Position numbers and translations under genes: made by a program
Assembly: GCA_015143295.1 (NCBI GenBank)
Contig: CM026554.1
Coordinates: forward strand, 30,951,531-31,015,530
Reading direction: 5' to 3'
DNA: 64,000 bases
Source of the DNA: Tetracentron sinense
Taxonomy: Eukaryota; Streptophyta; Magnoliopsida; Trochodendrales; Trochodendraceae
Shown: in pieces, positions 1 through 60,099 of the stretch
How positions within the stretch are numbered: position 1 is the first letter of the stretch
Layout: each line of letters opens with the position of its first letter
Notes under the pieces: model-generated
Told to the model about the DNA's origin: nothing
What the model saw: the letters and a program-made list of their open reading frames with translations, nothing else
The model's database searches: none

Positions 1-91
1 CATAAATTTTGGCTTTGTCAGGTGGTTTAGGTAACGAGAAAGTGGAACTCGTTAGAATCATAGCGAATCTTACAATTCCAAATACAATTAT

Positions 92-2184
92 TGTCGCTCC
101 CCAAAAACCCACCTTGGTCAAATGGGACTTTGGGCATGTGACACTACTTGTACATCATTGACGTAATAATATACAAGGCATGAATAGATTGAGAATCTAA
201 AAAAATTTCTTTAATAACATCAATAATAAGATTCTCCATTATGAAATAAACTATCAAACATAATTTGACCAAGTTAACATAATTCGGATCAAACATCAAG
301 ATCCCTGTAATAAATCCCAACCTAAGCAACATCGATAAAACATCATTACAACCCTTTAATTAAACGAAGTCTAGTAATATGGAAAATGATCTAAATCTCT
401 AACTCCCTCCTCAAGGAGGTCACCTTCTTCTTCTTAATATTCATTTTCAACCCAAGGTTCGTCAGCACCCTCCGAATCTAAACCTGTCGACATCAAAAGT
501 TCAATTGAGAAAAAAAAATGCTTAGTGGATATAAAGTCTATCTGATAACATAATGTCACATGTACATAATCAGTATCATCATTCATAGTATATTTACATA
601 TTCAGAGTGTGAAAATCATATGAGCATACCATATCATCACCTTGACTCGTGTATTTATGTGACTCATGGACTTATACATGTGAGAAGCATGTTCATGATA
701 AGATGCATGTTCATGATAAATGGCTTATTCGACAACGCATTATAAGATGCACATCTCAGGTGAATTGCATGGTTCGACAACGCATGATAAGATGCACATT
801 CTGGATAAATTGCATAGGTAGACAACGCATGATAAGATATGTATCCATGATAAGTTTAATATTCAACAACGCATGATAAAATGCAGGTTCATGATAAATG
901 CATGTTCTTGTGAGACACGTGTACTTGTGAAACTTACACTTACCATGCATGTGAATTTGTGCTTAAGTGTCGTGATTAATATTCATTTAGGTTATCCCTT
1001 ATATTATGATCTCCCACTAAAAAACTCTACCAAGGCGTCCAACACTACGATGGTTATAGAATTCCGGGTTAGATAGGTCTTCCTCTAAGTCTTAGTCTAT
1101 CCGAATTTCAATCACCATACAAGGTTACATAACTTATAGTTTATCTTACAAATCAATATGCTTTCTCATACATTCATAAATTCCATAACAAGTTCCTAAC
1201 ATTGATTGTCCCTATCCATCCTCATCATACCCATCCGCCTCACAATCATGCACAAAATGTCCTTCCTCCAACATACAAAGTCATTCCTCATTCACATTCA
1301 TGATCAAAACCCTACAAATCCACCCAAATACATCCACATAGTTTCCCATCCTCAATTTCATACATTACTAGGATTAAACATCAAATATCAATACCATAAT
1401 ATCCATATCATATTTATCAAAACACATAAGTGCATAAAACCCCCCATTTCATGCTCAATAATTAACAATCCATGCATAATAATATAAATCACCTAATAAT
1501 CCTTGTTTAAACATGCAAAAATCATAATAGAATTAGGTTAGACAATATATTGGCCTTTTGGAATCGTTTCCATATGATCCAACACTTGAGAAATTGCTTT
1601 TAGGGCGATCTCCAAGCTTTTCCTCCCTCTCTAAATTAATCTCTCTTGGAAACCTTAGGTTTTCTCCCATTTTCTCCCAAATTAGGTTTATAACATTTAA
1701 TAAACCCTAAACTCACTAAATAGGGGTCTATTTATAGTGTTAGGGGTTTAAAATCCTAAAATCCTGCAACTTAGGGCATTCTCGAAATAAAATGCGCGAC
1801 ACTGTTCGAATGGCCTAAGGATCGTTCAAACGGTTTTGCATTTGGGACTTACTGTTTTTTGTTTCTCCGTTCAAACAGACTAATAATCATTAGAATAGTA
1901 TGTAAATCGTTCGAACGAACTAGGTTCTTTTGGACAGTTTTGGATTCGGGAATGACAGTTCAATTGCTTTTACTGACACCGTTCAAACGGTCTAGGGATC
2001 ATTCGAACGATTCCCCCTATTTTCCTCATTTTTTGCATATTTTTATTCTTTCTCCATTTGTTTAGTCGTTTATACTTTTAAACACTCCAAAAACATTAAT
2101 TAACATTAAACACACAACACATATTTAATTTGATAATTTTATCCTTGCTAATCACATAAATGGGATGAAAGTCGGGTCTCTACA
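92..2184 (-). mobile_element. Gypsy-like solo LTR (LTR1, copy A)
   Basis: A 2093-bp solo LTR on the minus strand. On that strand it begins TGTAGAGACCCG and ends GGGGAGCGACA, like Ty3/gypsy LTRs of the Tekay/Del type. It is flanked by the 5-bp target repeat ATTAT / GTTAT. The second tandem copy of the same exon (4977-5035) shows the uninterrupted site, which confirms both ends. It holds a loose tandem array around 'acaacgcatgataagat' at 700-890 and a phased palindrome cluster at 1805-2007. No internal coding part remains. It is a fossil older than the segmental duplication. Confidence 0.85.
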
Positions 2185-2824
2185 GTTATTTTGGGGAACC
2201 ATGATTCTTGGACAACTCAACCCCAGCCCTACCCTTACCCTTAAGAGTAGGGCCCTAACCCTACCCTCAAGGGCCAGGGCCAAGCAGTGCCGAAAGAAAG
2301 AGTGAGAATTTTTTTGTCATCTGAGATGACGAGATTTTTTTCTACACTGACTACCAACCTAACATGGAATTGGATACCCTTCTCCTTTATCCGGGCTTGG
2401 GATCGACATTTGAACAAAAAGAAAAATGACATAGTTTAAAAAAACTCCTTGTCAGTGACAGTCAAACATAATATAATAAAACAAAGTAAAGGAAAAGAAA
2501 AAAATAGTAATAAAACTATATAGAACAGAGCTTAAAATATGTTTAATTACCTATATCCTTCATTAATATATCTAATTTTGACACGTTTATTAACTCTAAC
2601 TTACTTTGAATTAACATTATGTGTCTGGTATAGCTGGTACGAATGTCATTTGATTCAATTATATTTTTTGAAGCTCTTCCTTTTGTCACTCCCTCACTTG
2701 TATTTTCATTTATTCCAATTGGTGAAAATTTTCAAGCTCTTCAACAAACTTTTGTTTTGGTTTTGTTAGGTGATTTAGGTAACGAGAATGTGGAACTTGT
2801 TAGAATCATTGTGAATCTTACAAT

Positions 2825-4976
2825 TGAAAGTATGCCTCTTTTTAATTTTAGAAAAACAATTCTTGGGAGGCATACATCGAATCCCAGATCTGACAGAGAT
2901 TCTAATTGATTTTATTCAATGAAGGTTAGAATAACAATCACCTTTACAACTTTGAAATTGTTAAGTCAAATCCACATAAGAATAGTACTCGCAAAACTTC
3001 ACAAGTGTCAAGTCTCCTATCGATTCACACGAACCTTCTTTTTCCTTTAAAGCTTTCTCTAATGGAAGCTAATGGCCCTTCCAAATTCCAGCTCTAGGAT
3101 CTTGAAATAAAGATTCAATCTTTATTGATCAAGAACCTTTCTTGATTAACAAGATCCTTAATATTCTTTTTCTATTTCCAAACTAGAAAAACAAGAGAAG
3201 AAAGGGGAGGGGAGGTGTGACTGTACACCTTCGGAGAAGAGAGAGAGGGGCGTAAGATTGAGGGAGGAGAAGATTTCCAAAAATCTGGAAATTAATTATA
3301 CGCCCAACACCTTGGACGTCTACCCCTTATATAGAGATCCTTCTTGGATCTCATCCTTATCCTAATCCAATTAGGATTCCCTCAATTGTTTCTTTTATTG
3401 ATTTCTCCTTAATTAATTAGGAGAAACTAACTTTATCCATTAGTAACCAACTAATCATATCCTTATCCTAATCCAATTAGGATTCATTGATTAGCAAGAA
3501 ACTAATAGAAACTTTGTCCAATAAGGAATCTTTAATTAGTAACTAACTCTAAGTAACTAACCTTATCCAATAAGGATATTAGTTATTAGAAACTAATTAA
3601 ATAATAACATTTATTATTTCCTCCTTGGAGTGGGCTTCTCACCCTAGGTGGGCCCCACTCCACATGCCCAAAGGGTTTCCAAAACCCTCTTGGTCACTTG
3701 AATTATTCTTTTATAATAATTCCCAATGAGTCCTACCCATTTGGTTTTTCACATCTAATGTGATTCCACCTTTTAGAGCTTCACTATACCATATAGTGAT
3801 TACTTAGAGAAATTAATTAATTTAATTATAAATTAAATTAAATACTTTAAGAAAGTCCTTGTGTGTGAGATCTAAAGGGATCTCCTATTTCCGGTTGTGG
3901 GACCAAGTACTCAACCTTTTGGTTAAAGCATTGTTACTAGAAAATACCTTTCCTACACTCCATTAGAACTATAGAATTTTATCTATATCTCTGGACTTCC
4001 ACTAATCACAATTAATGTCAATTAACACAATGTGATTAACCTCTAGAAATTAAAGAATTGCTTGTAAGTACCATCTCACAATATATTTACAAATAAATCC
4101 TTCCACATTCTGATATCACTTGTAAGCTTCCGGGATTGGAACAATTCCACTGTCTAGTCTCTAGCTTATGAATAGAACCATTTCTCATGATTACTTTTTC
4201 ATTGAACTGAACCTCCAAAACACTTTTGAAGAAACATTAGAAAAGAACTGACATATATATATATATACTTTTCCATATTGAAAATATCAACTTCGATAAA
4301 GACCATTTTACCGAAAAACATCAGTACTGGATTTAACAGTTCAGTTCAACAAGTATCACCTTGATATCATTATCTCCAATTAAGGAGTTGTGGATTCCTT
4401 ATTGAGTGTTTACACACTTCTCCAAACATTGTGTACATAACCCAACGTATCCGGAGTTAGACCTGTATATTGGACATTGCCGATTGACACATCAAAGCCA
4501 TATAGACAGATGTCTGAGAAGATGTTAACCTCTCAGGTCTAAGGAGAATTTGTCAAATTGATAAACCTAATACAATCTGACAGTGTATTCCATAGGGTAT
4601 CCACTAGTGACCCCGTTCAGTATTATGTACTTGCTACATATACTCACATGTTAGTCAAGAGTCACCACTCTCTGTGAATGAGATTCATCATACTATCTCA
4701 TAAAACTACACATGTGCAAGCCATGATGAAGTACGGCGCCCAACCAATACTCTAGAGGCTTCGAACAATATTAGGTTTACAAGGAACCGAAAAATCATAT
4801 CTCTTCGCAACTTTTGCATGATTTTCCTACAATGTTACCTATGGAACTTTATGTCTTCATCATATGAGACAATAATTAATATAAATACCCTTTATAGTTG
4901 GTTGTGTGAATATGATGCTTGTCTAATCAACATAGAAAAATCTGTTATTGGCTTTCGAGGGCATATATGTCCAACA
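2825..4976 (-). mobile_element. Copia-like solo LTR (copy A)
   Basis: A 2152-bp solo LTR on the minus strand. On that strand it starts TGTTGGACATATATGCCC and its far end reads GGCATACTTTCA. A perfect 5-bp target repeat ACAAT flanks it (2820-2824 and 4977-4981), and removing it rejoins the metallophosphoesterase exon. A related LTR in the opposite orientation lies at 45255-51725. The start motif and length suggest Ty1/Copia. No coding domain remains, so the class is inferred from the ends. Confidence 0.78.
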
Positions 4977-5040
4977 ACAATTCCAAAAGCAGTTATTTTT
5001 GGGAACCATGATTAATCCCGGACAACTCAACCAATTCCCC

Positions 5041-6560
5041 CAAAGTAAGCTCAACTGTAATATGTTGTCAATGCTTCAACTTTCCTCTAATTTTGATAGT
5101 TTTGATGCCTCGAGCAAGATATACAGATTTGCACACAATATGCTAAAGCACTCTCTTTTATGGAGTGTTTCTTTACTTCTTGGACTCTATAAGTCTAAGT
5201 AATAGTCTTATCATAAATGTCTGCAATATTTTTATAGATATTTTCGTGAAATTTAGAGAATAAAAGAATTTTATGTCATTCATGCTAAATTTTGTTACTA
5301 TTGTAAGATAGAGGATCAGAGGACTGGTAAGCACTTATAACTATCATCTATCGGTTTTTGTGATCCGCACTTGTCTTAGAAAATTCTGCTATTCTTCACA
5401 TTTCATATGCTCGAAAGGGAAGCATTCTTCAAAGAATCTATCCCTCATCAGGCCTTTACTGGCCAACTTGAGACGTGGTCTACAAGGCTTCTGGGAATTA
5501 ACCAATGAATGTTATTAGTATTCTCCAAAGCTAAGGGTACCTCCATCCTACTGCCATGGCATTCCTATCCTGATAGGATGGATGTGACATTAGATTGTGG
5601 AGGCCTATTTATGTCATATACGTTGTATTCTTATTATGCCTTCCTTTTGTTTTTTTGTTGAATTGTTATTATGTCGTTACATAATGCTTGTATACACAAA
5701 TATTTGTTTGTTGCATCTTGTTTGGTTAATTGCATGTGCTTAAACCATTTGGTTTGTATGGAGTTTGGGGGAAATAACCAATAATCCTTTTAATAATTAC
5801 CAGTCTTGGCGAGGAACATGTCGGTTATAAGCGTTCAGACTTTCCTATGCTAAAGGTGAGTGTTGGTGGTGGTGCTTTTGTTTGCAATATTGGTAGAGTG
5901 TATAAAAACAAATTTTCTCAGAATTAGAAGATATTATGCATCTCTTACAAAGCAAGCCAACATAAACTTCTCAAGAGATGTAATTAAAAAAATGAATATA
6001 TAAGAAGTTATAATTGGAAAAATGAATATATAAATGTAATTGGAATAATGAAAAACAAGAAAATGAGACTAAATGTTCACCCTTTCCTATTTCATGGCTT
6101 TTTCACAATATATGAAAATCCCTGTGTTAACCCCACATGATATGAATTTGTCTCATTTAAGCCATGTTGTAATTACATTGCTTTTATTGTCTAGTTAATG
6201 ACCTCATCATATTAGAATTAGCACTACTATAGCTCAACCTTGTCCCAACGAAGATTCTTTTCAAATTTATGTTCATAGTTTCGATACTTTGTCATCTTTG
6301 TGGGATTCTTACATCATTCGATGCACATATGCTAACTAAACTGCTTGCTTTGCCCTTATGAGATTATCAAACCTTGATACTATTTTATTGTAGCTGATAT
6401 TGCAACTTCTCCACTTGAAAAATCCTTTTAGTTATGGAGTCTATGACATGGAATGAAGTACAAATGATATCAATGAAATTGATTTGGGAACACCGGAGTT
6501 TCATTCCATTATATTAATTTTGCACACAATGGGGAATTTTTTTTTATAAAAAATATCTTC
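5041..6560. other. Intron-like remains of the pseudogene, copy A
   Basis: Apart from the short exon at 5808-5893, this holds AT-rich sequence consistent with decayed introns. It has a counterpart in copy B (24856-26380). I see no other coding segment or transposon end in it. Confidence 0.5.
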
Positions 6561-7254
6561 ATTTTTGTACAGGTCTAAGATCTAATATGAATGACATATG
6601 TGGAAGAGATTGGATGTTTTGAGGCAGCGACCATGGTGATCTGGGTAATGTCTTTGTCATGCAATTCATGTTCCTCTATTATGTTGGATTTGTAGATACT
6701 CTAATGTTCTGAACAAATCTAATGTTATAAATTTAGCAAAATTCATATCTGACGAGACAAGCTGATTCACTATCCCTGTGGTCGTGTCAGGCCATGTGCA
6801 TAAAGAACTAACATATAGGAATAACTTTAGGAAGATTATTGTGGTTGCGGATGACAATGCTATATACTTGAATGGAGTTGTTGTTCAAATTGTGAAAAAA
6901 ATGACCGGGGAACAAGGAAACCATAAGGAACTCGTAACAAAAGTTTTATGAAAGATGAAACCTCTCTTTGTACACCTGAGATCAAAGGCACACGAGTCTT
7001 TATTGTTGTGGAGATTTTGGAGAAAGATTAAAGAAAATAGCAGAGACTTGGGTTTCAGATCCAACAAAGTCATCCGCTTTGTCAACTACACTGTTGTCAT
7101 GTTTCAAAGAACTCATTAATGTACACCACATGTTTTTGAGCTAGTTTTAAAATCTCCCTTTCAATTTTATGATTTTAAACCTAATTCTTTGGCTATTTTC
7201 TAGTTCTGAAATTGATAGTAGGTGAAAAATTCCGATGAACCCTAAAAATAATAT

Positions 7255-9928
7255 TTTTAGGTTGAGAACTCACCAACCCAAGGGGGTGGCTAGGTCTTCT
7301 TAAAAGCCTATCTACCCTATTTAAATTTTAGCAATCATATTATTAATTAAGGGTGGATAACAATTAAGTGTAGAATAAATAAAGACAATCAAACCACAAC
7401 ACAATGGATTTTTAGGTGGAAACCCTTCAACGAAAAACCAAGGGACCTAGTCCGGCAAAAGTTAACACTAAGACAGAGTAAAAGAAACTTACAAGACTTA
7501 AACCATACTCAACCGGACTTGACACAACGATCCTCAGTACTCAGTCTATAGAGACCCAAAACTAGATTGTCTTTAAACTTGTGAACAATAAATGAAATCT
7601 GGAAATTTTGCTCAATTAAATTCAATTTATGTCTCAATATTTTTATGTAATGTCATTTGATGATTAGCTATGGTTAAATTTACATTAGGGTGTTTGCTTA
7701 AATGTTAAAAGTGAGAAAAAAGACCAAAGTGTGGAAAATCAAAGCACACCAGTCGACCACCCTTCATTCCGGTCGACCGCTCACGTGCGGATTTGCCCAG
7801 AAATCCCTAAATTGATTAGGATTTTGTACTTGAAAATTTTATAAAGGACTCTAAAATCTATATAAGGACCTTAACTTGTGGGTTTTAGGGTTACAAACAT
7901 CCTAAGAGTTTTAGAAATCCCAGAGAGAGTTTTGCAAATGCTTTTGGAATGATTTTCATCTCAAGGAGAAAGAGAAGCTTAGAGATCATCTCTAAGGTCA
8001 TTCCAAAGTGATGCGATCATAGAGAAGCAATCAAGGAAGATACTATACATTGTTCTAGCTAATGATTGTTATAAGATAAGTACTTTCAAGACCTGGATAT
8101 GTTTTTATATGTTACTATAGTTTGAATGGACATGTTAAAATATGGATTACATGATTTAAAGAAGGTTTGATGTTAAGATTTGGAAATGAATGGATGATGA
8201 TATACCATACATTATTCTAACCTAATAATATGTACGATATGATGATTAAGATCTGGAAAGTTATGCTTATATGTTTTTATGCCATGATGATTATGATGAG
8301 GTTAGGGTTTGCATGATTTCAAGAGGAATTGTATTAATGATTTTGATTGGGTTAAGAGATATTCGAACCAATATGTTATTGATATTATGATAATGATTTG
8401 AGGATTTTAATGACGTTTTAGGCATAATGATTTTGATTGGGTTAAGAGATATGGGAACCAATATGTTATTGATATTATGATAATGATTTGAGAATTTTAA
8501 TGATGTTTTAGGCATGATATTATGATTTTTTTTTCTAGAAATATCATGCACATGTGATTGAACTTGATGATTTTAGGGTGTTGCACATGAATGGAATTAT
8601 AAGAAAGGGATTTAGTTGGATGATGATTAAACCTGAAAAATTCTATGATGTTAATTGTGATTCTATTCGATGTACATAAGCTATTCTTGGATGAACTTCC
8701 ATGCAAATTATGCCTAATTATGCATGTCTATCGATTGATTGACATTCGGGTAGGTAAATACTTAGAGGATGACCTCAAGCCCTAAATTTTCTATCCTTAG
8801 TTATATGGGTGGCTTTGGTGTGAATTAAGGTTTTGATGTTGGAATCTAAAGGATAACCTAGATGAATTTTGATCATGACACTCAAGCATATGTTGCACCG
8901 TATGATAGGAATTTTAAGTATATGTCTCACAAGAACAAGCACTTGCATGTCATTGGGGATCTATCATGTTACATGCATTATGGGGAACATCTTACATGCC
9001 ATTGGAAACTATCATGTTACATGCATTAGTACACATGTTTATAGGAGCTTTCATGATCATGCACAAGTCTTTCATGTCTACACAAGTCACTAGTCTTACA
9101 TGTCATGAATAGGTGCTTCTATGTTCACATGTTCCACATATGAATTGTAAGATATGTTTATTTATGATAAAGCATGACCGTGATTACATGTTATGATATT
9201 ATTAGCTAGACTTTGTATGCACTAAGCTTTCGCTTGCTCAACTGTACTTTTTATGTCGATAATTTCAGGAGGGTTTGAAATTTGTGCTCCTAAACCTTGG
9301 GAAGAGGAGGAGTATCAAGACAAACAAGAAGGTGATCATGTTGAAGAAGAAATGGATATGGATAGATGGCCCTATTAATGATTTTTTGTTAGTTTGTTTT
9401 ACTTTTCAATTTAAGAGAGATGTAATAAGACAAATTCTAAGCTGATGTTGCTTAGGTTTTATTTTGAATTGAGATCATATGGGTGATCGGATTATATTCT
9501 ATTAGTTGGTCGACAGCTTAAATACTTCTATTAATTATCTATGAGAGAAATTTTGAGACTCTCACTTTAGCATGCTTTTATGTTGATTACATGCATATAG
9601 ATATGTATTGTCACAGGTCCAAGGTCTCATTGACCAACAAGGGATTTTGGGCGTGACACAGTCCTCCACACCTCAATAAGCCACCACGAACTCGCAAATC
9701 CTGTGATAAACCACAACAGCCTATTCTTCTCTTGTGTCTCCAAATAACCACGATCCTACTTGAATCGATCTCCTTCGCAAAGGCTTCGGATTACTCCGAC
9801 CAAGTTGTTCTTGAAAGAACTGGTTGATGGTTGTTAATTCAAACAAACCCTAATTGAATCCCAACAGTGAGAATAAACAAGCAAGTAATAAAGAATCAAT
9901 GACTTGCAATCTCTAGGGTGGAAGAGGA
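7255..9928 (-). mobile_element. Copia-like LTR relic interrupted by LTR2 (copy A)
   Basis: Sequence on both sides of LTR2 (about 7255-7546 and 9659-9928) appears to be one older LTR-like unit. In copy B the same unit continues past the end of the duplication to about 30331, where the minus-strand sequence begins TGTTGGATTATACAG, a Copia-like LTR start. Copy A is cut off at the duplication border. The left end and a target duplication could not be fixed. A fossil with no coding domain seen. Confidence 0.38.
7547..9658 (+). mobile_element. Gypsy-like solo LTR (LTR2, copy A)
   Basis: A 2112-bp solo LTR. It starts TATAGAGACCC, a decayed form of the TGTAGAGACCC start of LTR1, and ends TTTTGGGCGTGACA. 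A perfect target repeat CAGTC flanks it at 7542-7546 and 9659-9663. A TATA-like ctatataagg lies near 7858. Two GTCGAC palindromes sit 20 bp apart at 7752 and 7772. Same broad family as LTR1 but in the opposite orientation, with different palindrome cores. Confidence 0.85.
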
Positions 9929-14376: not shown

Positions 14377-17259
14377 ATGGATGCAGGATTCTCTAGCAGA
14401 TTGTCTCGATTACGTCTCCAAGAACAGATCCATCAGAAGAGAAATTCGCGTGAAAATGTATGTGGATCATCGATTTCTATAATAGCAATTCGTTTTACTG
14501 TGATTGGTTTGAATTTCTGTTTTAGGGTTTTTTTTTTTCTCATTGGTTCTGGTAATTTCCTGAATTCTGGGTTTTTTTCCTGTAATCAATGCTTTTGTGG
14601 GCATTTTATATTGGGTTCTAGCTGTTTATATCTCGATTCACTAGAAAATATGTATGAATCATTGAAATTCTCTGGTTCCCTTTTTCTTTTATTGTGATTC
14701 GAATAAAACTCCTAATTTGAATAAATCTGTAAATTAGGTCTTAGATTTTATATTTTTCCTCCTTTGGAAATTTTCCTAAGAAAATGTTTGAATCATCTTC
14801 TCCTTGGCAGCTGGACAGATTCATCCCGAACCGTGCTGCAATGGATTTTGATTATGCTCATTACATGCTTATGGGAGGGAAGGTAGGAAAGGATGATTCA
14901 GAAACAAGCTCTCCGGCCAAAGAGGCTTACAGGAAGCAACTAGCTGAAATTTTCAACATGAACAGAGGCCGAATCCTTGCTTTTAAGAACAAGCCATCTA
15001 CCCCAGCTGAGGGGATTTTCGAAGAACCCTCATCTGTCCGTCGAGTGAAACCCTCCAAGCCTCAAAGATACATTCCCCAAGTGAGTTTTCTTCCTCTTCT
15101 TCAATCTCTTAGCATTGGTGTCTTTTGAGTGATCACTGTTTTGATGGGTTAAATTATATTCGACAATTACAGACTTCAGAGAAGACACTAGATGCCCCCG
15201 GCCTTCTTGATGATTACTACGCGAATCTGCTGGATTGGGGTAAAACCAATGTTCTGGCGATTGCCCTCGAAAGTTCGGTATATTTGTATGATGCTTCTGA
15301 TGGGTCTACTTCAGAACTTGGGAACTTTTATGATGAGGATGGTCCTGTTACAAGTGTCAGTTGGGCTCCTGATGGACAACACATTGCTGTTGGGTTGCAC
15401 AATTCTGATGTGCAGCTATGGGACACTTTAGCTAATAAACATGTCAGTGATTTCTCCTAAATTTTAATATTGCTTGGGTTTATTTCTATACTTTGTGGTG
15501 ATGATTTTGTTTACTTTGATGGATTTTGCAGGTAAGAACTCTGCAAGGCGGGCACCATTCTAGAGTGGGGGCGCTTGATTGGAATAATCACATCCTGACA
15601 AGTGGGGGAAATGATGGTCTTATAATCAACAATGATGTGAGAATAAGGTCCCACATTGTCAAAACCTACAGAGGACACCACGGAGAGGTCTGCGGGCTAA
15701 AGTGGTCGGCCTCGGGTCAGCAACTAGCAAGCGGAGGAAACGACAATCTCCTCTTCATATGGGACAAGTCAATGGCATCTTTGAATTCTCCAACACAATG
15801 GCTTCACAGACTGGAAGATCACACCGCTGCTGTGAAAGCTCTTGCATGGTGTCCTTACCAGAGTAATTTGCTTGCCTCTGGCGGGGGCTTAAGTGATCAG
15901 TGCATAAAGTTCTGGAATACCCACACTGGTGCGTGCTTGAACTCGGTGAATACGGGCTCACAGGTCTGTTCTTTGCTATGGAACAATAACGAGCGGGAGC
16001 TGCTGAGCTCTCATGGGTTCACGGATAACCAACTCACTGTGTGGAAATACCCTTCCATGGTTAAGATTGCCGAGCTCTTTGGTCATACTTCAAGAGTTCT
16101 GTTCATGGCCAAGGTAATTCTCTTTTCTTTTTTTCTTTGCAAGAGTTAAAGTTATCAGCCAACAAATTTTTCAGAGCTGAAATGGAGATGTGCTTCCAAA
16201 GTGGCAAGCAAAAAAGATCTCAGGGGATGTTTCACATATTGGTCAATTATTACTGGTCCTTTGCAGTTGTGCATCTGAAAATTGAGCAATGAGCAAAGGA
16301 AGAGAGTACTAAGAAACAGTAGAATGATATTCACTAGGAGCTCCACTTCTTCTGCATCAGACAGACCTGGAGCTTGAGTAGTAGGGATTTTGCTAGCCCC
16401 AGTCACAAATTTTCCAAAGACGCAACTGGGGCGCTACAAATGGCCGACACTCTCTGACTTTTACTTTTACAACTGTTAAAATAATGAGACATCTTCACGT
16501 TTTAGGCCCATCTTGCGTCTATGGAAAAATTTGGAGTAAATGCGGCTGGGACTAGCACTCCTCGAGTAGTAAAGATGTAGAGTAGAACAATCCATGTCCA
16601 GAAGTGCCTTTATGTCAAATGGAGCCCCAAGGTTTTCAGTGAATACAGTACTGTGGAAACTTTAAGTTGTATTTCCAGCAAAATGATCTCATTTAGTTGT
16701 TTCCGTTTTCTTTGTTGAATCATTTACAAATTTTTTCTTCATCCATTTTAGTTATATAAATACATTTGTAATTGAAAAGAATAGCATTATAGAGTAATCA
16801 ATGTCATATTCATTGCCACTCATCTATCTTAAAAATCTTCATCTCAACTATGCTGAATTTATCAATTCTTATTACCCAACGTTCTGCTCCATAAAGCATG
16901 TTGGTTTGCTTGCTGTTTAATAATTTATTTCTTTTAATTTGATTGGTATACGCCGATTACATAGTACTTCGGAAGCACATCTCCATTTCAGCCAACCAAG
17001 TCCAATTCTATGTGTTACTTCCTCCATTTACTTGTGAAATTGAGATAGATTTATAGACTGGATCTCAATTTTGACTGACTTGTTAATTTCTGTTCTTCTC
17101 TTGATGAATGTTTTCCAGAGCCCAGATGGGTGCACAGTAGCATCTGCTGCAGCGGATGAAACTCTAAAGTTTTGGAATGTTTTCGGGACTCCAGAAGTAG
17201 CTAAGCCTGCACCCAAAACAAATTGGGAGCCATTTGCTAACATTGCCCGCATCAGATGA
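14377..17259 (+). CDS. CDC20: CDC20, activator of the anaphase-promoting complex
   Basis: Five coding exons: 14377-14457, 14811-15080, 15173-15442, 15532-16113 and 17119-17259. All introns are GT-AG and phase 0, giving 447 aa, the usual plant CDC20 length. CDC20 recruits substrates to the anaphase-promoting complex (APC/C) and answers to the spindle checkpoint. Visible parts: a possible D-box RLRL at 11-14; C-box DRFIPNR at 29-35; RILAFKNKP at 81-89, the region that binds Mad2 in the family; [14 protein letters not shown] at the start of the propeller; seven WD40 blades from about 145 to 425 (for example [30 protein letters not shown]); and a C-terminal IR tail (NIARIR) that docks on APC/C. 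The start is the first ATG in frame with the conserved N-terminus. Residues 25-27 are REN where Arabidopsis CDC20 has KEN. No break seen, so it is likely functional. Confidence 0.96.
16176..16992. repeat. Inverted repeat arms in CDC20 intron 4
   Basis: A perfect 22-nt inverted repeat (16176-16197 and 16971-16992) lies about 0.77 kb apart inside the 1005-bp last intron. The flanks also share 'agccaac' in inverted form. This could mark the ends of an inserted element or let the intron fold. No target duplication was recognised. Confidence 0.7.
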
Positions 17260-19646: not shown

Positions 19647-19873
19647 ATTAACATTAAGTGTCTGGTATAGCTTGTAGGAATGTCATTTGGTTCAATTCTA
19701 TTTTTTGAAGCTCTTCCTCTTGTCACTCACTTGTATTTTCAGTTATTCTAACTAGTGAAAATTTTTCAAGCTCCTCAATAAACTTCTATTTTGGCTTTGT
19801 CAGGTGATTTAGGTAACGAGAAAGTGGAACTCGTTAGAATCATAGCGAATCTTACAATTCCAAATACAATTAT

Positions 19874-21981
19874 TGTCGCTCCCCAAAAACCCACCTTAGT
19901 CAAATGAGACTTTGGGCCCGTGACACTGCTTGTACATCCTTGACGTAATAATATACAAGTCATGAATAGATTGAGAATCTAACAAAATTTCTTTAACAAC
20001 AGCAATAATAAGATTCTCCATTATGAAATAAACTATCAAACATAATTTGACCAAGTTAACATAATTCGGATCAACCATCAAGATCACTGTAATAAATCTC
20101 GACCTAAGCAACATCGATAAAACATCAAGTTTCTATTACAACCCTTTAATTAAACGAAGTCTAGTAATATGGAAAATGATCTAAATCTCTAACTCCCTCC
20201 TCAAGGAGGTCACCTTCTTCTCCTTAATATTCCTTTTCAACCCAAGGTTCGCCAGCACCCTCCGAATCTAAACCTGCCGACATCAAAAGTTCAACTGAGA
20301 AAAAAAAATGCTTAGTGGATATAAAGTTTATCTAATAACATAATATCACATGTACATAATCAATATCATCATTCATAGCATATTTACATAATCAGAGTGT
20401 GAAAAGCATATAAGCATACCATATCATCACCTTGACTCGTGTATTTATGTGACTCATGGACTTATACATGTGAGAAGCATGTTCATGATAAGATGCATGT
20501 TCATGTTAAATGGCCTATTCGACAACGCATTATAAGATGCACATCTCAGGTGAATTGCATGGTTTGACAACGCATGATAAGATGCACATTCTGGATAAAT
20601 TGCATAGGTCGACAACGCATGATAAGATGCACATTAATTTTATAGTTCGAAAACGCATGATAAGATATGTATCCATGATAAGTTTAATATTCAACAACGC
20701 ATGATAAAATGCATGTTCATGATAAATGCATGTTCTTGTGAGACACGTGTACTTGTGAAACTTACACTTACCATGCATGTGAATTTTTGCTTAAGTGTCG
20801 TGATTAATATTCATTTAGGTTATCCCTTATATTCCGATCTCCCACCAAAAACCCTACCAAGGCGTCCAATACCACGATGGTTGTAGAATTCTGGGTTAGA
20901 TAGGTCTTCCTCGAAGTCTTGGCCTATCCGAATTTCAATCACCATACAAGATTACATAACTTATAGTTTATCCTACAAATCAATATGCTTTCTCATACAT
21001 TCATAAATTCCATAACAAGTTCCTAACATTGATTGTCCCTATCCATCCTCATCATACCCATCCGCCTCACAATTATGCACAAAATGTTCTTCCTCCAACA
21101 TGCAAAGTCATTCATTCCTCATTCACATTCATGATCAAAACCCTACAAATCCACCCAAATACATCCACATAGTTTCTCATCCTCAATTTCATACATTACT
21201 AGGGTTAAACATCAAATATTAATACCATAATATCCATATCATATTTATCAAAACACATAAGTGCATAAAACCCCCATTTCATGCTCAATAATTAACAATC
21301 CATGCATAATAATATAAATCACCTAATAATCCTTGTTTAAACATGCAAAAATCAAAATAGAATTAGGTTAGACAGTATATCAGCCTTTTGGAATCGCTTC
21401 CATATGATCCAACGCTTGAGAAATTGCTTTTAGGGCGATCTCCAAGCTTTTCCTCCCTCTCTAAGTCAATCTCTCTTGGAAACCTTAGGTTTTCTCCCAT
21501 TTTCTCCCAAATTAGGTTCATAACATTTATTAAACCCTAAACCCACTAAATAGGGGTCTATTTATAGTGTTAGGGGTTTAAAATCCTAAAATCCCGCAAC
21601 TTAGGGCTTTCCCGAAATAAAATGCGCGACACCGATCGAATGGCCTAAGGATCGTTCGAATGGTTTTGCATTTGGGACTTACTGTTTTTTGTTTTTATGT
21701 AAATCATTCGAACGAACTAGGTTCTTTTGGACAGTTTTGGATTCGGGAATGACAGTTCAATTGCTTTACTGACACCGTTCAAACGGTCTAGGGATCATTC
21801 GAACGATTCCCCCTATTTTCCCTTATTTTTTGCATGTTTTTATTCTTTCTCCATTTGTTTAGTCGTTTATACTTTTAAACACTCCAAAAACATTAATTAA
21901 CATTAAACACACAACACATATTTAATTTGATAATTTTACCCTTGCTAATCACATAAATGGGATGAAAGTCGGGTCTTTACA
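19874..21981 (-). mobile_element. Gypsy-like solo LTR (LTR1, copy B)
   Basis: Counterpart of 92-2184, about 2.1 kb, between the same target repeats ATTAT (19869-19873) and GTTAT (21982-21986). It is present because the whole segment was duplicated, not because of a second insertion. Confidence 0.85.
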
Positions 21982-22632
21982 GTTATTTTGGGGAACCATG
22001 ATTTTTGGACAACTCAACCCTAGCCCTACCCTTACCCTTAAGAGTAGGGCACTAACCCTACCCTCAATGGCCAGGGCCAAGCACTGCCGAAAGAAAGAGT
22101 GAGAATTTTTTTGTCATCTGAGATGACGAGATTTTTTTCTACACCGACTGCCAACCTAACATGGAAATGGATACCCTCCTCCTTTATCCGGGCTTGGGAC
22201 CGACATTTCAACAAAAAGAAAAATGACATAGTTTAAAAAAGCTCCTTGTCAGTGACAGTCAAACATAATATAATAAAACAAAGTAAAGGAAAGAAAAAAA
22301 AAAAAAAAAAATAGTAATAAAACTATATAGAACAAAGCTTAAAATATGTTTAATTACCTATATCATTCATTAATATATCTAATTTTGACATGTTTATTAA
22401 CTCTAACTCACTTTGAATTATCATTATGTGTCTGGTATAGCTGGTAGGAATGTCATTGGATTCAATTATATTTTTTGAAGCTCTTCCTTTTGTCACTCCC
22501 TCACTTGTATTTTCATTTATTCTAATTGGTGAAAATTTTCAAGCTCCACAACAAACTTCTATTTTGGTTTTGTTAGGTGATTTAGGTAACCTAGAATGTG
22601 GAACTTGTTAGAATCATTGTGAATCTTACAAT

Positions 22633-27059: not shown

Positions 27060-30000
27060 AAATAATATTTTTAGGTTCAGAACTCACCAACCCAAGGGGG
27101 TGGCTAGGTCTTTTTAAAAGCCTATCTACCCTATTTAAATTTTAGCAATCATATTATTAAATAAAGGAGGATAACAATTAAGTGTAGAATAAATAAAGAC
27201 AATCAAACCACAACACAATGGATTTTTACGTGGAAACCCTTCCAGGAAAAACCAAGGGACCTAGTCCGGCAAAAGTTAACACTAAGACAGAGTAAAAGAA
27301 ACTTACAAGACTTGAACTATACACAACCGGACTCGACACAACGATCCTCAGAACTTAGTCTATAGAGACCCAAAACTAGATTGTCTTTAAACTTGTGCAC
27401 AATAAATGAAATCTGGAAATTTTGCTCAATTAAATTCAATTTATGTCTAAATATATTTATGTAATGTCATTTGATGATTAGCTATGGTTAAATTTACATT
27501 AGGGTGTTTGCTTAAATGTTAAAAGTGAGAAAAAAGACCAAAGTATGGAAAATCAGAGCACACCGGTCGACCACACCCTTCATTCCGGTCGACCGCTCAC
27601 GTGCGGATTTGCCTAGAAACCCCTAAATTGATTAGGATTTCGTACTTGAAAGTTTTTAATAAAGGACTCTAGAATCTATATAAGGACCTTAATTCGTGGG
27701 TTTTAGGATTACAAACATCTTAAGAGTTCTAGAAATCCCAGAGAGTTTTCCATATGCTTTTGGAAAGATTTTCATCTCAAGGAGAAAGAGAAGCTTGAAG
27801 ATCATCTCTAAGGTCATTCCAAAGCGATTCGATCATAGGGAAGCAATCAAGGAAGATATTATACATTGTTCTAGTTAATAATTGTTATATGATAAGTACT
27901 TTCAAGACCTGGATATGTTTTTATATGTTACTATGGTTTGAATGGGCATGTTAAAGGTATGGATTACATGATTTAAAGAACGTTTGATGTTAAGATTTGG
28001 AAAGGAATGGATGATGATGTACCATACATTGTTCTAACCTAATAATATGTACGATATGATGATTAAGATCTAGAAAGTTATGCTTATATGTTTTTATGTC
28101 ATGATGATTATGATGAGGTTAGGGTTTGTATGATTTCAAGAGGAATTGTATTAATGATTTGATTGGGTTAAGAGATATTCGAACCAATATGTTATTGATA
28201 TTATGATAATGATTTGAGGATTTTAATGACGTTTTAGGCATAATGATTTTGATTGGGTTAAGAGATATGGGAACCGATATGTTATTGATATTATGATAAT
28301 GATTTGAGGATTTTAATGATGTTTTAGGTATGATATTATTATTGTTTTCTAGAAATCTCATACATATGTGATTGAACTTGATGAAATTGATGATTTTAGG
28401 GTGTTGCACATGAATGGAATTATAAAAAAGGGATTTAGTTGGATGATGATTAAACCTGAAAATTCTATGATGTTAATTGTGATTCTATTCGATGTACATA
28501 AGCTATTCTTGGATGAACTTCCATGTAAATTATGTCTAATTATGCATGTATATCGATTGATTGACATTCGGGTAGGTAAATACTTAGATGATGACCTCAA
28601 GCCCTAAATTTTTTATCCTTAGTTATATGGGTGGCTTTGGTGTGAATTAAGGTTTTGATGTTGGAATATAAAGGATAACCTAGATGACTGTTGATCATGA
28701 CACTCAAGCACATGTTGCACCGCATGATAGGTATTTTAAGTATATGTCTCACAAGAACAAGCACTTGCATGTCATTGGGGATCTATCATGTTACATGCAT
28801 TATGAGGAACATCTTACATGCCATTGGAAACTATCATGTTACATGCATTATTACACATGCTTACAGGAGCTTTCATGATCATGCACAAGTCTTTCATGTC
28901 TACATAAGTCACTAGTCTTACATGTCATGAATGGATGCTTCTATGTTCACATGTTCCACACATGAATTGTAAGATATGTTTATTTATAATAAAGCATGAC
29001 CGTGATTACATGTTATGATATTATTAGCTAGACTTTGTATGCACTAAGCGTTCATTTGCTCAACTGTACTTTTTATGTCGATAATTTTATGAGGGTTTGA
29101 AATTTGTGCTCCTGAACCTTGGGAAGAGGAGGAGTATCAAGAAAAACAGGAAGGTGATCATGTTGAAGAAGAAATGGATGTGGATAGATGACCCTATTAA
29201 TGATTTTTTGTTAGTTTGTTTTACTTTTCAATTTAAGAGAGATTTAATAAGACAAATTCTAAGCTGAAGTTGCTTAGGTTTTATTTTGAATTGAGATCAT
29301 ATGGGTGATCAGATTATATTCTATTAGTTGGTCGACAGCTTAAATACTTCTATTGATTATTTATGAGAGAAATTTTGACTCTCACTTTAGCATGCTTTTA
29401 TGTTGATTACATGCATATGGATATGTATTGTCACAGGTCCAAGGTCTCATTGACCAACATGGGATTTTGGGCGTGACACAGTCCTCCACACCTCAATAAG
29501 CCACCACGAACTCGCAAATCCCGTGATAAACCGCAGCAGCCTATTCTTCTCTTGTGTCTCCAAATAACCACGATTATACTCGAATCGATCTCCTTCGCAA
29601 AGGCTTCGGATTACTCCGACCAAGTTGTTCTTGAAAGAACAGGTTGATGGTTGTTAATTCAAACAAACCCTAATTGAATCCCAACAATGAGAATAAACAA
29701 GCAAGTAATAAAGAATCAATGGCTTGCAATCTCTAGGGTGGAAGAGGAGATTGAGTTTGGCAAACCCTAATAATCTCAATAAAGCTCTCTCACATCTCTG
29801 CTAATTCGTTTTGGGGAACAAAACCTATAAATAGAGGCCAAAAATAGAGTTTTAAAGTGTTTAGAACAGTCAAAAATATTATTCATACAATTACTATTCA
29901 CGTTATTTACAATTCTACCACTAAAAATTTGAATAATTCTAGAGAGGTCAATTTTTATCGAATTAAGCTCAAATTTTAATCATATCTACTTTGGGTCATC

Positions 30001-32387: not shown

Positions 32388-34433
32388 TGTCGCATCCCAA
32401 GGTACCCCCTAGGAGTTAGGATACTTTTGGCTCATGACTTCATTACCAAACCATCCTACAAACATACAAGGCATACTGTAGCAGAAGCAGAACACAAAAC
32501 TTCTTCTATACTTACAGTACTCCAAGTTTATAAACAAAACCAAAGTAAAGAGTGAACATCTTCACTCATCAAAATGTATATGCAAATCTCTCCCTCTCGT
32601 CACTCAATAGTAATCGAGATAGGGTCACCTATCAAGTGTCATTTGCTCCTAAAGACTGCCAAGAGTCTGCTCCTCCTCAACATAAGTCTCCTCAACCTAC
32701 GGTTCTTGAGGGCGACCGCAGATATCGAATGGACCTGCCGAAGTAACAGTTCGTCTGAGCATGGAATACTCAACGTATACAAACCACAAGATAACAATGT
32801 CATAAACATTGATCATAGCATATATAGCATATTTCATCAAAACGCATGCATTAATTTAATCAAAGCGAGGAAACCTTACTTTTGAAACCATCGTGTACAT
32901 ATTTTCCAGAAAACATCTTTACTTCTTTACTTTACTTTATATTACTTTATCATCTTTACTTCTTTACTTTACTTTACAGTATTTATCATCTTTACATTAT
33001 TTTACCATCTTTACATTACGGGTATTTAAAATACCTTAGTCTACCTTCGGAGTCAGACAACCAGTATCTGTAGCCCTTCCTCAAACATAACAAGGTTGGC
33101 CTGTTATCATCCTCCCCGTTGGCTATTACCAAGATGACTAGTACCCATAACCCTTCTTCAAACAAAATCGGGTCGGGCCTACTATCAACCAGTAACGTCA
33201 TTACTTCCTTTACTTTCTTTTAGAGCCAGATGACAAGTACTGTCAACCCTTCTTTGAATATAATCGGGTTGGGCCAACTATCATCTTCTCACCATTAATT
33301 CCATCACCGTCTTTACTCTACATCATTTCTCATTTACCTCTTTTATACCTTACTTCTTCTTTGGATACCCATACTTTAGCAAAATCTCAATCATGCAATA
33401 CATATGTGTCAGTGTAGCAACTGATGGTAACACTTGGATACCTTTAACATATAGCTAATAATTCACATATTTCATTCATAACAATAGCCCATATACACAT
33501 AGGTCACAAACATCCAATTACATCGAAACATATGGTTTTATTCTCGATTTTCCCCAAAACTTATGTCTTTTATCATGTTTTCCACAATTTAGTCATAATC
33601 TATACTTTTCATTCTTTGGTTTAAAGCATAGAAGCATCACAGGTTAATTAGTAGGATTTCTTACTAGTTCACATCACAAAACATAGGTTTTTATCTTGGA
33701 TTTCAATAAAGATTATGGCATTAAAAGCTAGTAGAGTGTATCTACCTTTCAAGGACTTACAGAAAGACTTCAGAAGGCTTCAAAACACTACACTTGTAGA
33801 AGTGAGATCCAAGATTAAATGGTGAAATCCGTGCTTCACCCTTAAATCTTTAACAAAAACTCTTTCCAAAACCCTAACTCTCTTTCTCTTTCTTTTAAAA
33901 ATCTCTCTTGGGGTGTGGTGAACCCTAAACCCAAGAAATTGAGTATTTATAGGCAAGGGGTGGCCCAAAGACCCAAACACCCTTAATGAAATATCTCAAA
34001 ATATCTAAACAGAGCAAAATGCTCATGTTCAATCGACCAGATGTTACACTTGGTCGATCAGACCTCAAGACCCTCTCTGCCAAAAAACCCCATATAAAAA
34101 TCCAGCTCATTCGGTCGACCGAAGGTTGCACTCAGTCGATTGGTAGTGGTTCGATTGACCGGATGAGATGGTCATTCGACCGGATCCCTGTACTTTGGCC
34201 TATTTTGGCCTTTTTCATCATTTTGACACTTAAATGCCTTCCCTTTCTTTCTTAACACATTTAAACATAAAAAAGGGCCTTAGGGCCCTGAACTACATAT
34301 CATAACACATTTAGTGAGTCCAAAACCCTCTCTACCGTTTCATCACATAAAAATTATAAGGCTTTAGGCCTTTACAAGAGTTGTGCCCTGGCACTATTCA
34401 CAGCATAATGAAATGCAGTTTTGGGGTTCTACA
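32388..34433 (-). mobile_element. Gypsy-like solo LTR (LTR3)
   Basis: A 2046-bp solo LTR on the minus strand. It begins TGTAGAACCCC and ends TTGGGATGCGACA on that strand, matching the ends of LTR1. The flanks are AGATC / AGATT, a slightly decayed 5-bp target repeat. Three pairs of TCGAC/TCGAT palindrome-like motifs, each pair 21 bp apart, lie at 34032-34180. Fossil; no internal part. Confidence 0.75.
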
Positions 34434-45442: not shown

Positions 45443-47299
45443 TGTGAGCGTGGAAAATTTTTAAAGGAACACTATTCCTCCCCCTCGTGGTGTATAATTG
45501 TTGGGGACGGGCCCGAGAGCAGAGGAAAGACGCCTTAAAGATTTTCACTCACCAATGGCTTTTGCATTAAATGAAAAAGTCGCCACCTATTTTGATTTTT
45601 GAGGGAAATAGAACCCGGGTTGATGTGGATAAGGGCCTACGGTCCAATGGTGAGATTCTAGGTAAAAGATTCGCTTAAGTCCCGAGGAAATGGTTAGGCA
45701 CCCCAAGACCCCCATCTTAAGATGGTTACATACTCTTCGAGTCTTTGCCAAACAAGCTATTTGCCAAGTGATTCGCCTAAGTATTTTGAAAATGCTAATA
45801 AAGAAGGGGTGATAGAGGTCAAATGAACCCTTGATCAGGTTTCCTAATTATCTGGCTTGGCGAAATCAGACCAATAGTAGTTCGGGAGGGAGGTGATCGT
45901 GCATATTTTATATTCAATTCGGAGTTTTGGTAGTTAAGCGCTCATACCGGAGCGGGGATAGATTAAGCGCTCATTTTGGATCATAGGTAGTTTTAGCTCA
46001 TTTCGGAGCATAGGTCACGCATCTTACGGCTTTGATTGCTTCTTTTGAACATTTTTACATTTTTTAGATGTTTTTGGAATTTTGATTTTATAATGTTTTA
46101 GATTTTGATTTTTTTAAACTGTTTTTGGTCTTTTAGGAAGATATCAAGGGCTTATTTAGAAGCCCAGGGAGTTAATGAAGACTAACTAGGGTCAAAACTA
46201 ACCTAGATGGTGAAAAATAGCTGAAAACAGACAAGTTATGCTCAAACCGTTCGAACAGTTATGGGACCATTTGAGCGGTCTGGGCTACTAGCCTCTAAAT
46301 CTGATCCTTATTTCTCAAACGTTCGAACGGTATGGGAATCGTTTGAACAGTTGAGTTTCTGGACAGATCCCAGGATCTGTTTTAAGCCTATCTTTCGCTG
46401 ATTTTAACCATCCTAAAAGGAAGGATTACAAGGGAGTGGAGCTCTAGATCTGATCTAGAACTCCTTACAAAGGGGATTTAAATGGATTTTGAATCGAAAA
46501 ATTGAAATGGAGATGGGTTGAGAAGTCTTACCCAATCCAAAGTCGCAAGAAGAATGGTTCTCGGCTTGATCGGGCCTCCTTTGCTCCTTCAAAGCTTGAA
46601 TCTGAAATTTGAGAGCTCCTTGAGGATCTTCAAATTTTGGAAATGTGGGATTCTTCTTATTTGGTTCTTCAAGCTCCAAGCACAAAGAAGAGTGAACTGG
46701 ATAAGAAGTGATGAAGATTTGGGGTTGTTTGAGGATGAGAGGAGATTAGAGTTTTTTGGATGGAGGTTAGGTTTGATGAAGGAGGCTAAGGATTAGGGTT
46801 TTCTATTAGAGAGAATTCTCTGGAACTCTAGGGTTTTGGGGCTAGAAGATGTGTCTTAAGGATTCTAAAAGATTAGGGTTTAAAGGAGAAAACTATGGGG
46901 GTATTTATAGGTTTTTCCAAGGGTAGGGATAAGTTGGGAATAATCCTAAAAGGCTAGGGGTGAGGTCATCACGAAATAGGGTGGATTGGATGACCTAATT
47001 AGGGTTCTAACTGATTTTTAAAAACTATGTGCACAAGAACCATTCGAACAGTCTGTGTTGAAATAGACTGGAAACGACCTAACAAACCGTCATGACCGTT
47101 TGAAACAGCTACTGGTCTGAGATTGGGATCAAACAAAAATGGCCAAGAATGGGTTTTGAGGTGGTTTTTGGGCTGGGCTTTGTGCTTTGGCTTGATTTTG
47201 AACGTCTTGGACCTCTGAGGAGGAGTTTTCATGCCTTGATTGACCTTCAAAGCTCTAGAGAAATTGGGTAAAAGAGGGGTCCAAAATGAGGTGCCCACA
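45443..47299 (-). mobile_element. Gypsy-like solo LTR (LTR5)
   Basis: An 1857-bp solo LTR on the minus strand. On that strand it starts TGTGGGCACCTC and ends TTTCCACGCTCACA, matching LTR4 (34894-37892), and shares 'ataggtggcgact'. A perfect 5-bp target repeat GATAT flanks it (45438-45442 and 47300-47304). TTCGAA-like palindromes occur 20 bp apart at 46250/46270 and 46322/46342. Fossil, no internal part. Confidence 0.85.
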
Positions 47300-48445: not shown

Positions 48446-48599
48446 AATTATGTACTAAAAATAGTATGTTAACTTATAAATTTATAAATTAACACTTTAA
48501 CTTATAGATTTTTGTACTAAAAATAGTATGTTAATTTATAAATTATAGCTATGTGATTACTGATTAATCAAAGTGGTAGTATATTTTGTTTATTTTTTA

Positions 48600-49140
48600 A
48601 AAGCCTTTATGGGTATAATCTTATTACCTATAAATAATTTTGAAGTTATAAAATATTAATAAGAAATTAATAATTTTTTAATATTACTAAAAAGCCATTA
48701 TGGGCATAATCTTATTACCTATAAATAATTTTGAATTTATAAAATATTATTAAGAATTATTAATTTTTTAATATTACTAAAAAGCCCTTGTAGGCATAAT
48801 CTTATTACCTATAAATAATTTTGAATTTATAAAATATTATTAAGAAATTATTAATTTTTTAATATTACTAAAAAGCCCTTATGGACATAATCTTATTACC
48901 TATAAATAATTTTGAATTTATAAAATATTATTAAGAAATTATTAATTTTTTAATATTACTAAAAAGTGCTTATGGGTATAATCTTATTACCTATAAATAA
49001 TTTTTAATGTATAAAATATTATAAATAATTTTTTTTAATATTATTAAAAAGCCCTTATGGCATAATCTTATTCTCTATAAATAATTTTTAATTTATAAAA
49101 TATTATTAAGAAATTATTTATTTTTTAATATTACTAAAAA
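48600..49140. repeat. Six-unit ~91-bp tandem array
   Basis: Units begin with aagcc(c/t)tt at 48601, 48692, 48782, 48873, 48964 and 49049. Each has taatcttattacctataaat and then taatattactaa. Spacing is 90-91 bp except the last (85). It lies within the hAT-type element. Confidence 0.93.
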
Positions 49141-60080: not shown

Positions 60081-60099
60081 TTTAGGACGTGAAGGAATA

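What the first reader, a model, noticed from the sequence alone, without database searches (positions are those of the whole stretch)
1805..2007. Palindromes spaced exactly two DNA turns apart in several solo LTRs
In LTR1 (copy A), TTCGAA-like hexamers start at 1805/1825, 1870/1890/1910 and 1982/2002: always 20 bp. The same layout recurs elsewhere. LTR5 has 46250/46270 and 46322/46342 (20 bp). LTR2 has GTCGAC at 7752/7772 (20 bp). LTR3 has TCGAC/TCGAT types at 34032/34053, 34114/34135 and 34154/34175 (21 bp). The 14-15 bp between the hexamers vary in sequence, and only the spacing and symmetry are kept. That is expected if a protein dimer pair binds one face of the helix. LTR1-3 and LTR4/5 appear to be different families, so the module may be shared or convergent. 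I know of no name for it.
Basis: partly seen in the sequence, partly recalled or inferred. Interest (0 to 1): 0.78.

Follow-up and report, generated by a model that had tools for sequence, protein, structure and literature searches.

The report
Paired palindromes in plant retrotransposon promoters
Remnants of plant jumping genes carry 14-letter mirror-image DNA motifs in pairs about two helix turns apart; this looks like a variant of the palindromic control boxes already described in other plant retrotransposons, with a regular spacing that still needs testing in a whole genome.

Summary
All 19 named positions lie within two letters of TTCGAA or GTCGAC (8 exact). In the window's distinct LTRs, loosely defined TCGA-centred near-palindromes form 7 pairs at 20-21 bp against 0.12 expected; none of 400 shuffles reached 7 at any neighbouring lags. 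Stricter definitions leave 1-3 pairs. The unit is a 14-bp palindrome: purine/pyrimidine symmetry holds at 105 of 112 positions 1-7 from the centre and is at chance from position 8.

Corrections: LTR1-3 are one related lineage; LTR1's modules lie in an internal duplication; LTR2 copy B is spaced 22; LTR3 also has a 19; spacers resemble each other within LTR1 and, once shifted, within LTR5. LTR5's modules lie downstream, not upstream, of its clear TATA, and may themselves be related to LTR1's.

The kind is known: palindromic repeated-motif (RM) boxes of Sirevirus LTRs (PMC2829016). The published Vitis RM, CGGTCGACCG, occurs in LTR2 and LTR3. Fixed pairing is the new detail. Best reading: dimer-binding cis-regulatory boxes. 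A hairpin between the two palindromes fits the sequence about equally well (9.0 versus 9.25 pairs of 14).

The parts
92..2184 (-). LTR1 copy A, complete solo LTR (2093 bp), TSD ATTAT/GTTAT (1 mismatch), TATAAATA at sense position 449
1801..1834 (-). LTR1A module M3: two palindromes, centres 1808 and 1828 (20 bp), 71-91 bp upstream of TATA
1866..1919 (-). LTR1A module M2: three sites, centres 1873, 1893 (weak, TTAGAA) and 1913, 20 bp steps
1978..2011 (-). LTR1A module M1: most symmetric pair, centres 1985 and 2005 (20 bp)
19874..21981 (-). LTR1 copy B, same insertion inside the duplicated ~10-kb segment; lacks about 34 bp that in copy A carry two of the three M2 sites
7547..9658 (+). LTR2 copy A, solo LTR (2112 bp), exact TSD CAGTC; first bases TA instead of TG
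7748..7781 (+). LTR2A pair of GTCGAC palindromes, centres 7755 and 7775 (20 bp), 84-104 bp upstream of TATA; the second contains CGGTCGACCG
27361..29478 (+). LTR2 copy B; same pair, centres 27569 and 27591, 22 bp apart (CA more than in copy A)
32388..34433 (-). LTR3, solo LTR (2046 bp), TSD AGATC/AGATT (1 mismatch), TATAAATA at sense position 483
34028..34062 (-). LTR3 pair a, centres 34035 and 34056 (21 bp)
34110..34184 (-). LTR3 row of four sites, centres 34117, 34138, 34157, 34178 (21, 19, 21 bp); the first contains CGGTCGACCG
45443..47299 (-). LTR5, solo LTR (1857 bp), exact TSD GATAT, empty site seen in the related copy near 4.8 kb
46246..46279 (-). LTR5 pair a, centres 46253 and 46273 (20 bp), downstream of the TATA at 46903
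46318..46351 (-). LTR5 pair b, centres 46325 and 46345 (20 bp)

Best explanation
The pairs are cis-regulatory modules of plant LTR retrotransposons. Each module is one family-specific 14-bp palindrome used twice (or in a short row), centres 20-21 bp apart, multiplied at least in LTR1 by local duplication in the U3 promoter region. Each palindrome is most likely the site of a homodimeric host DNA-binding protein; two turns of spacing put two dimers on one face, so they can bind together and raise (or repress) transcription from the nearby TATA box. Shown: the symmetry, its 7-bp half-length, the spacing, the place upstream of TATA in LTR1-3, and that 31 of 38 departures from symmetry are of the transition kind (one third expected for random non-pairs), as if once better palindromes had decayed. 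Inferred: protein binding, cooperativity, effect on transcription, and decay through cytosine methylation. It works like the palindromic RM boxes of Sirevirus LTRs.
For: Spacing excess against shuffles and its scarcity elsewhere in the window. R/Y symmetry 16,16,15,16,16,13,13 of 16 at distances 1-7 (1-3 partly by choice of the sites; 58 of 64 at 4-7) and 9,9,8 of 16 at 8-10; 128 control TCGA sites outside the LTRs give 0.49-0.58 at distances 3-10. Sites 71-268 bp upstream of TATA in LTR1, 84-104 in LTR2, 83-226 in LTR3 (positions). LTR1 and LTR2 are related at 58-61%, yet the related pair is TTYGAA-type in one and GTCGAC-type in the other, both palindromes of the pair changed alike. LTR1-LTR3 U3 alignment 67 against 27.8 +/- 3.6, 0 of 200 shuffles. 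Published analogue with the identical decamer.
Against: Complementarity between the two palindromes is about as good as within each, so the dimer reading is not singled out. LTR5's modules lie 565-657 nt downstream of its clear TATA; a weaker TATAAAA at 46086 could be its promoter, untested. LTR2A's first palindrome is symmetric only in the hexamer. Few independent cases: one lineage (LTR1-3) and LTR5, whose modules may be related to LTR1's. After the A/B duplication LTR1's modules changed at 6 of 91 positions, the rest at 70 of 1965, so the modules are not conserved now. CpG transitions are dense there (4 of 91 against 7 of 1965, Fisher P 0.0009), but per CpG the excess is not significant (4 of 12 against 7 of 37, P 0.43). 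No binding, expression or small-RNA data; no factor was matched.
Confidence: 0.53

Rival explanations
1. RNA (or single-strand DNA) hairpin: the two palindromes of a pair pair with each other, giving a stem of up to 14 bp and a 6-7 nt loop in the U3 part of the 3' end of the transcript. Spacing is kept because the loop is. Such stems feed siRNA production, as proposed for maize Sirevirus palindromes, or serve RNA handling.
For: All 8 modules tested fold with the two palindromes paired in the minimum-energy structure, z -0.28 to -2.82. Cross pairs average 9.0 of 14 against 9.25 within palindromes; with transitions allowed both are 13.1 of 14. LTR3 pair a and LTR2A are better inverted repeats (9, 9) than two palindromes (7, 8). 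Excess small RNAs at Sirevirus palindromes reported by Bousios et al. 2016 as cited in PMC10760457 and PMC5311732 (passages).
Against: Three of 8 folds have z above -1.8 (-0.28, -0.84, -1.71), and the centroid of LTR1 M1 does not pair the two palindromes. LTR1 M1 and LTR3 b are better palindromes (12, 11) than hairpins (10, 8); the other four modules tie. On the + strand the non-Watson-Crick cross pairs are split about evenly between G-T and A-C (2.0 and 2.1 per module), so nothing shows selection for RNA pairing.
Confidence: 0.22
2. Historical accident of duplication: one pair arose once and was copied inside U3 and between related LTRs, so the constant spacing reflects copying and not a constraint.
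For: LTR1 U3 positions 178-276 and 290-381 are 66% identical; spacers resemble each other within LTR1; LTR1-3 are related. LTR5's module stretch aligns with LTR1's better than shuffles (43 against 23.5 +/- 3.7, 0 of 200) and in the same order, so it may be the same module by descent or exchange.
Against: LTR1-3 U3s differ in length (448, 312 and 482 bp before TATA) and need many gaps to align, yet the pair spacing is 20, 20 and 21. The core sequence changed while symmetry stayed. BLASTN sees only short LTR1-LTR5 module pieces at E 0.05-0.14, in the other order than the alignment; shared palindromes alone may drive either match.
Confidence: 0.21
3. Chance plus pattern-seeking by the reader.
For: With the strictest site definition only one pair at 20 bp remains and 10 of 400 shuffles match it at some lag. 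LTR2A yields no pair with the 14-bp criterion, and LTR3 and LTR5 alone are matched by 2 and 3 of 100 shuffles.
Against: Loose and 14-bp definitions both give an excess over the LTRs together and in LTR1, and symmetry outside the chosen hexamer is 58 of 64 at positions 4-7.
Confidence: 0.04

Closest known systems
RM boxes (palindromic repeated motifs) of Sirevirus LTRs, Bousios et al. 2010, PMC2829016
   Same: Palindromic motif repeated within one LTR, sequence specific to each element, clustered in the upstream part of the LTR before TATA; 3-14 copies per 3'LTR there, 2-7 per LTR here. The Vitis RM CGGTCGACCG occurs exactly in LTR2A (sense 224) and LTR3 (sense 313).
   Different: Those have a CGG-CCG core (except Tnd-1), a TATA near mid-LTR and LTRs of 0.54-1.68 kb. 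Here the core is TTCGAA with CCG outside in LTR1 and LTR5, TATA at 0.15-0.24 of the LTR, LTRs of 1.86-2.11 kb. The parts read mention no fixed spacing between boxes.
[quoted passage not shown] 2016 (paper not held; known through passages of PMC5311732 and PMC10760457)
   Same: Clusters of palindromes in the regulatory part of LTRs, with predicted secondary structure.
   Different: Motif reported as CACCGGACNNNGTCCGGTG; small-RNA hotspot reported there, untested here.

Membership tests
Sirevirus RM boxes | Palindromic motif repeated in the LTR upstream of a TATA box | tested here: met
   LTR1, LTR2, LTR3. For LTR5 not met: modules lie downstream of its TATA at 46903.
Sirevirus RM boxes | CGG-CCG core | tested here: inconclusive
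   Met in LTR2A and LTR3 (CGGTCGACCG once each); not met in LTR1 and LTR5 (CCG outside TTCGAA).
Sirevirus RM boxes | At least 8 copies per element (3-14 of them in the 3'LTR) | tested here: inconclusive
   7 in LTR1A, 2 in LTR2A, 6 in LTR3, 4 in LTR5; internal regions are absent, so the total cannot be counted.
Sirevirus RM boxes | RM cluster forms a CpG island | tested here: inconclusive
   U3 CpG observed/expected 1.24 in LTR1A (rest of LTR 0.55), 0.72 in LTR2A, 0.53 in LTR3, 0.36 in LTR5 before its TATA; window 0.53. No island program was run.
Sirevirus element | TATA box about the middle of the LTR (all but two of the 21 elements of PMC2829016) | tested here: not met
   0.21, 0.15, 0.24, 0.21 of LTR length.
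Sirevirus element | C-rich integrase signal about 21 bp from the LTR end (17 of 21 elements) | tested here: not met
   Crude test: no run of four or more C in the last 60 bases of LTR1A, LTR2A, LTR3 or LTR5.
Sirevirus element | PBS junction CA/ATTGG-TATCAGAGC, PPT AGGGGGAG, copia-type pol | not testable with these tools
   All four are solo LTRs without internal region.

The most novel reading that the evidence does not exclude
A fixed-geometry 'double box' (14-bp palindrome, 6-7 bp gap, same palindrome again) is a general promoter architecture of several plant LTR families outside the Sireviruses; the families swap the palindrome's sequence, in both copies at once, while keeping geometry, as if tracking different members of one host factor family that binds as paired dimers.
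Probability: 0.15. Interest if true: 0.62.

Novelty: new variant of a known kind. Interest (0 to 1): 0.35.

Why it matters
RM boxes were described in 2010 without a known binding factor. A precise unit (14-bp palindrome, 20-21 bp step) gives a concrete probe for finding that factor in binding data, and makes it testable whether the boxes act as protein sites or as hairpins that trigger silencing.

Tried and rejected
IMG/VR scans for pairs of CGTTYRAACG (82 stretches) and of CGGTCGACCG (26 stretches) gave contigs without BLASTN match to the window at E 1e-3; that test covered the 228 loci then held, not the 30 fetched later. Literature strings of the palindromes found 114 papers, 25 listed, none about LTRs by title. 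Tandem Repeats Finder (score 40 and up) calls no array at the modules, and Rfam finds nothing in the window at gathering scores, so a tandem simple repeat and a described RNA family are set aside. My first reading of the LTR1 A/B changes, that CpG decay is 13 times over-represented in modules, does not stand once counted per CpG. I also first held LTR5's modules to be non-collinear with LTR1's; one search shows a collinear alignment, so the odds of the best explanation and the novel case were lowered by 0.02 and those of the duplication rival raised by 0.03 (chance, recounted with the per-LTR shuffles, by 0.01). Recalled candidates (MYB AACNG half-sites, CHR/CPP TTYGAA sites, NAC, LOB) come from no call and none seems to fit both TTCGAA and GTCGAC types.

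Full report
What the window is. The window is most likely plant nuclear DNA: a CDC20-type WD40 frame at 15520-16149 (Pfam PF24807, E 2.4e-78), a zf-RVT fragment at 52857-53720 (LINE-type is my reading), and several LTRs. The plant assignment is an inference; no call names the organism. About 10 kb from the left end recurs at 19.8-29.7 kb, 92-97% identical in most of the 20 largest repeat families listed, so LTR1 and LTR2 each exist as copies A and B that are not independent.

The LTRs. Four distinct solo LTRs hold the modules: LTR1A 92-2184 (2093 bp, minus), LTR2A 7547-9658 (2112 bp, plus), LTR3 32388-34433 (2046 bp, minus) and LTR5 45443-47299 (1857 bp, minus). TSDs are ATTAT/GTTAT, CAGTC/CAGTC, AGATC/AGATT and GATAT/GATAT. 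One-mismatch TSDs alone are weak evidence (other candidates were listed); for LTR1-3 they are backed by matching ends (TGTAGA or TATAGA at the start, GACA at the end) and for LTR5 by an empty site: the joined flanks align with a single GATAT in the related sequence near 4.8 kb. LTR1 and LTR2 are 58-61% identical over most of their length. The U3 of LTR3 aligns with that of LTR1 nearly end to end (score 67, null 27.8 +/- 3.6, 0 of 200 shuffles) and more weakly with LTR2 (48, 28.4 +/- 4.2, 0 of 200); by BLASTN LTR3 matches LTR2 over 100 bp from the TATA on (E 1e-4) and LTR1 over 53 bp (E 0.14) only, so its place in the lineage rests on the U3 alignment and the ends. LTR5 has different ends. Its promoter region scores above shuffles against LTR1 (45, 25.8 +/- 3.4, 0 of 200), not against LTR2 (153 of 200), and slightly against LTR3 (6 of 200); its module stretch scores 43 against LTR1 (23.5 +/- 3.7, 0 of 200), 34 against LTR3 (1 of 200), and not against LTR2 (71 of 200). 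I treat it as another family, with the relation of its modules to LTR1's open.

The observation. All 19 positions named were read: 8 exact TTCGAA or GTCGAC, 9 with one other letter, 2 with two. Spacing is 20 in LTR1A, LTR2A and LTR5 and 21 in LTR3, as stated. Shuffling tests are given in the observation check: clear for LTR1 and for the LTRs together, modest for LTR3 and LTR5 alone, absent for LTR2A with the 14-bp criterion.

The unit. Over 16 palindromes in 8 modules (both palindromes of LTR1A M1 and M3, LTR2A, LTR3 a, b, d, and LTR5 a, b; left out were M2 of LTR1A, LTR3 c and the B copies) purine/pyrimidine symmetry is 16,16,15,16,16,13,13 of 16 at distances 1 to 7 from the centre and 9,9,8 at 8 to 10. 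Watson-Crick symmetry is 11,16,10,10,11,6,10 and then 3,6,5. At 128 TCGA sites outside the LTRs R/Y symmetry is 0.49-0.58 from distance 3 on. So the motif is 14 bp long, and 31 of its 38 departures keep R/Y symmetry (one third expected of random non-pairs), as if it had decayed by transitions. Whether this is methyl-C deamination is not shown. Since the A/B duplication, LTR1 modules changed at 6 of 91 aligned positions, 4 of them CpG transitions; outside, 70 of 1965 and 7 (Fisher P 0.0009 per position). Per CpG it is 4 of 12 against 7 of 37 (P 0.43), so the excess reflects CpG density. LTR2 has 1 of 34 (a CpG transition) against 83 of 2070 with 6. Of 26 core dinucleotides read, B copies included, 18 are CG, 4 CA, 3 TG, 1 AG.

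Descent and change. The module is shared by LTR1-3 through descent. LTR2's single pair aligns with LTR1's TATA-proximal pair and with LTR1's distal pair and LTR3's pair d in the multiple alignment; which is right cannot be settled. Either way the related pair is TTYGAA-type in LTR1 and GTCGAC-type in LTR2, with both palindromes changed alike. Within LTR1, U3 positions 178-276 and 290-381 are 66% identical, so its modules multiplied by duplication. Spacers are CTAGGG and CTAAGG in LTR1 (5 of 6 alike), TATGGG and ATGGGA in LTR5 (2 of 6 in register, ATGGG if shifted by one); between LTR1 and LTR5 2-3 of 6.

Mechanism. In LTR1-3 the sites lie 71-268, 84-104 and 83-226 bp upstream of the TATA box (reckoned), where enhancer boxes of LTRs are expected. 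In LTR5 they lie 565-657 nt downstream of the TATA at 46903; a second TATAAAA at 46086 might be the promoter, but nothing shows it. The dimer reading and the hairpin reading predict the same spacing. Pairs within palindromes average 9.25 of 14 and between palindromes 9.0; allowing transitions both give 13.1. By module, two favour palindromes (LTR1 M1, LTR3 b), two favour the inverted repeat (LTR3 a, LTR2A) and four tie. All 8 fold with the two palindromes paired in the minimum-energy structure, z from -0.28 to -2.82. I favour protein binding because of the location and the known analogue, at 0.53 against 0.22.

Known or new. PMC2829016 (seen: sections 9 and 19, parts 2 and 3 of 7 of the text, and passages) describes repeated palindromic motifs, RM boxes, in 13 of 21 Sireviruses, 92% of the LTR copies in the upper half of the LTR and drawn upstream of TATA, and says they are absent from the other Ty1/copia elements compared. 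The Vitis RM is CGGTCGACCG, found here once in LTR2A and once in LTR3. The LTRs here fail two Sirevirus features that could be tested (TATA at mid-LTR, C-rich end signal, the latter by a crude test), leave copy number, core and CpG island open, and lack the internal parts needed for the rest. So they work like RM boxes, and are not filed as Sireviruses. Fixed pair spacing is not mentioned in the parts read, and the eight answered literature searches (several listed only part of the papers found) showed no paper on it by title or start of abstract; passages of seven papers were read. The library lacks most subscription journals and the 2016 Genome Research paper, so absence from print is not claimed.

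Noticed in passing
6-9844 and 19788-29664: Segmental duplication of about 10 kb, start-to-start distance 19.8 kb, 92-97% identical in most repeat families listed, on either side of the CDC20-like gene.
   Followed up: partly
1865-1898 (LTR1 copy A); junction near 21695 in copy B: Copy B lacks about 34 bp that in copy A carry two of the three M2 palindromes.
   Followed up: partly
No 20-21 bp pair was found there.
   Followed up: partly
48599-49140: Six copies of a 91-bp tandem repeat at 90%.
   Followed up: no
59859-60084: Two copies of a 111-bp unit, 98% alike, apparently recent.
   Followed up: no
L001-L082 (IMG/VR loci): Pairs of CGTTYRAACG 18-34 bp apart in viral contigs favour 22 bp (8 of 34 sequence clusters; next is 23 with 4), perhaps phage operators; unrelated to the plant LTRs.
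   Followed up: partly
L073 6525-6795: Row of CGTTYRAACG palindromes at exact 29-bp steps in a viral contig.
   Followed up: no
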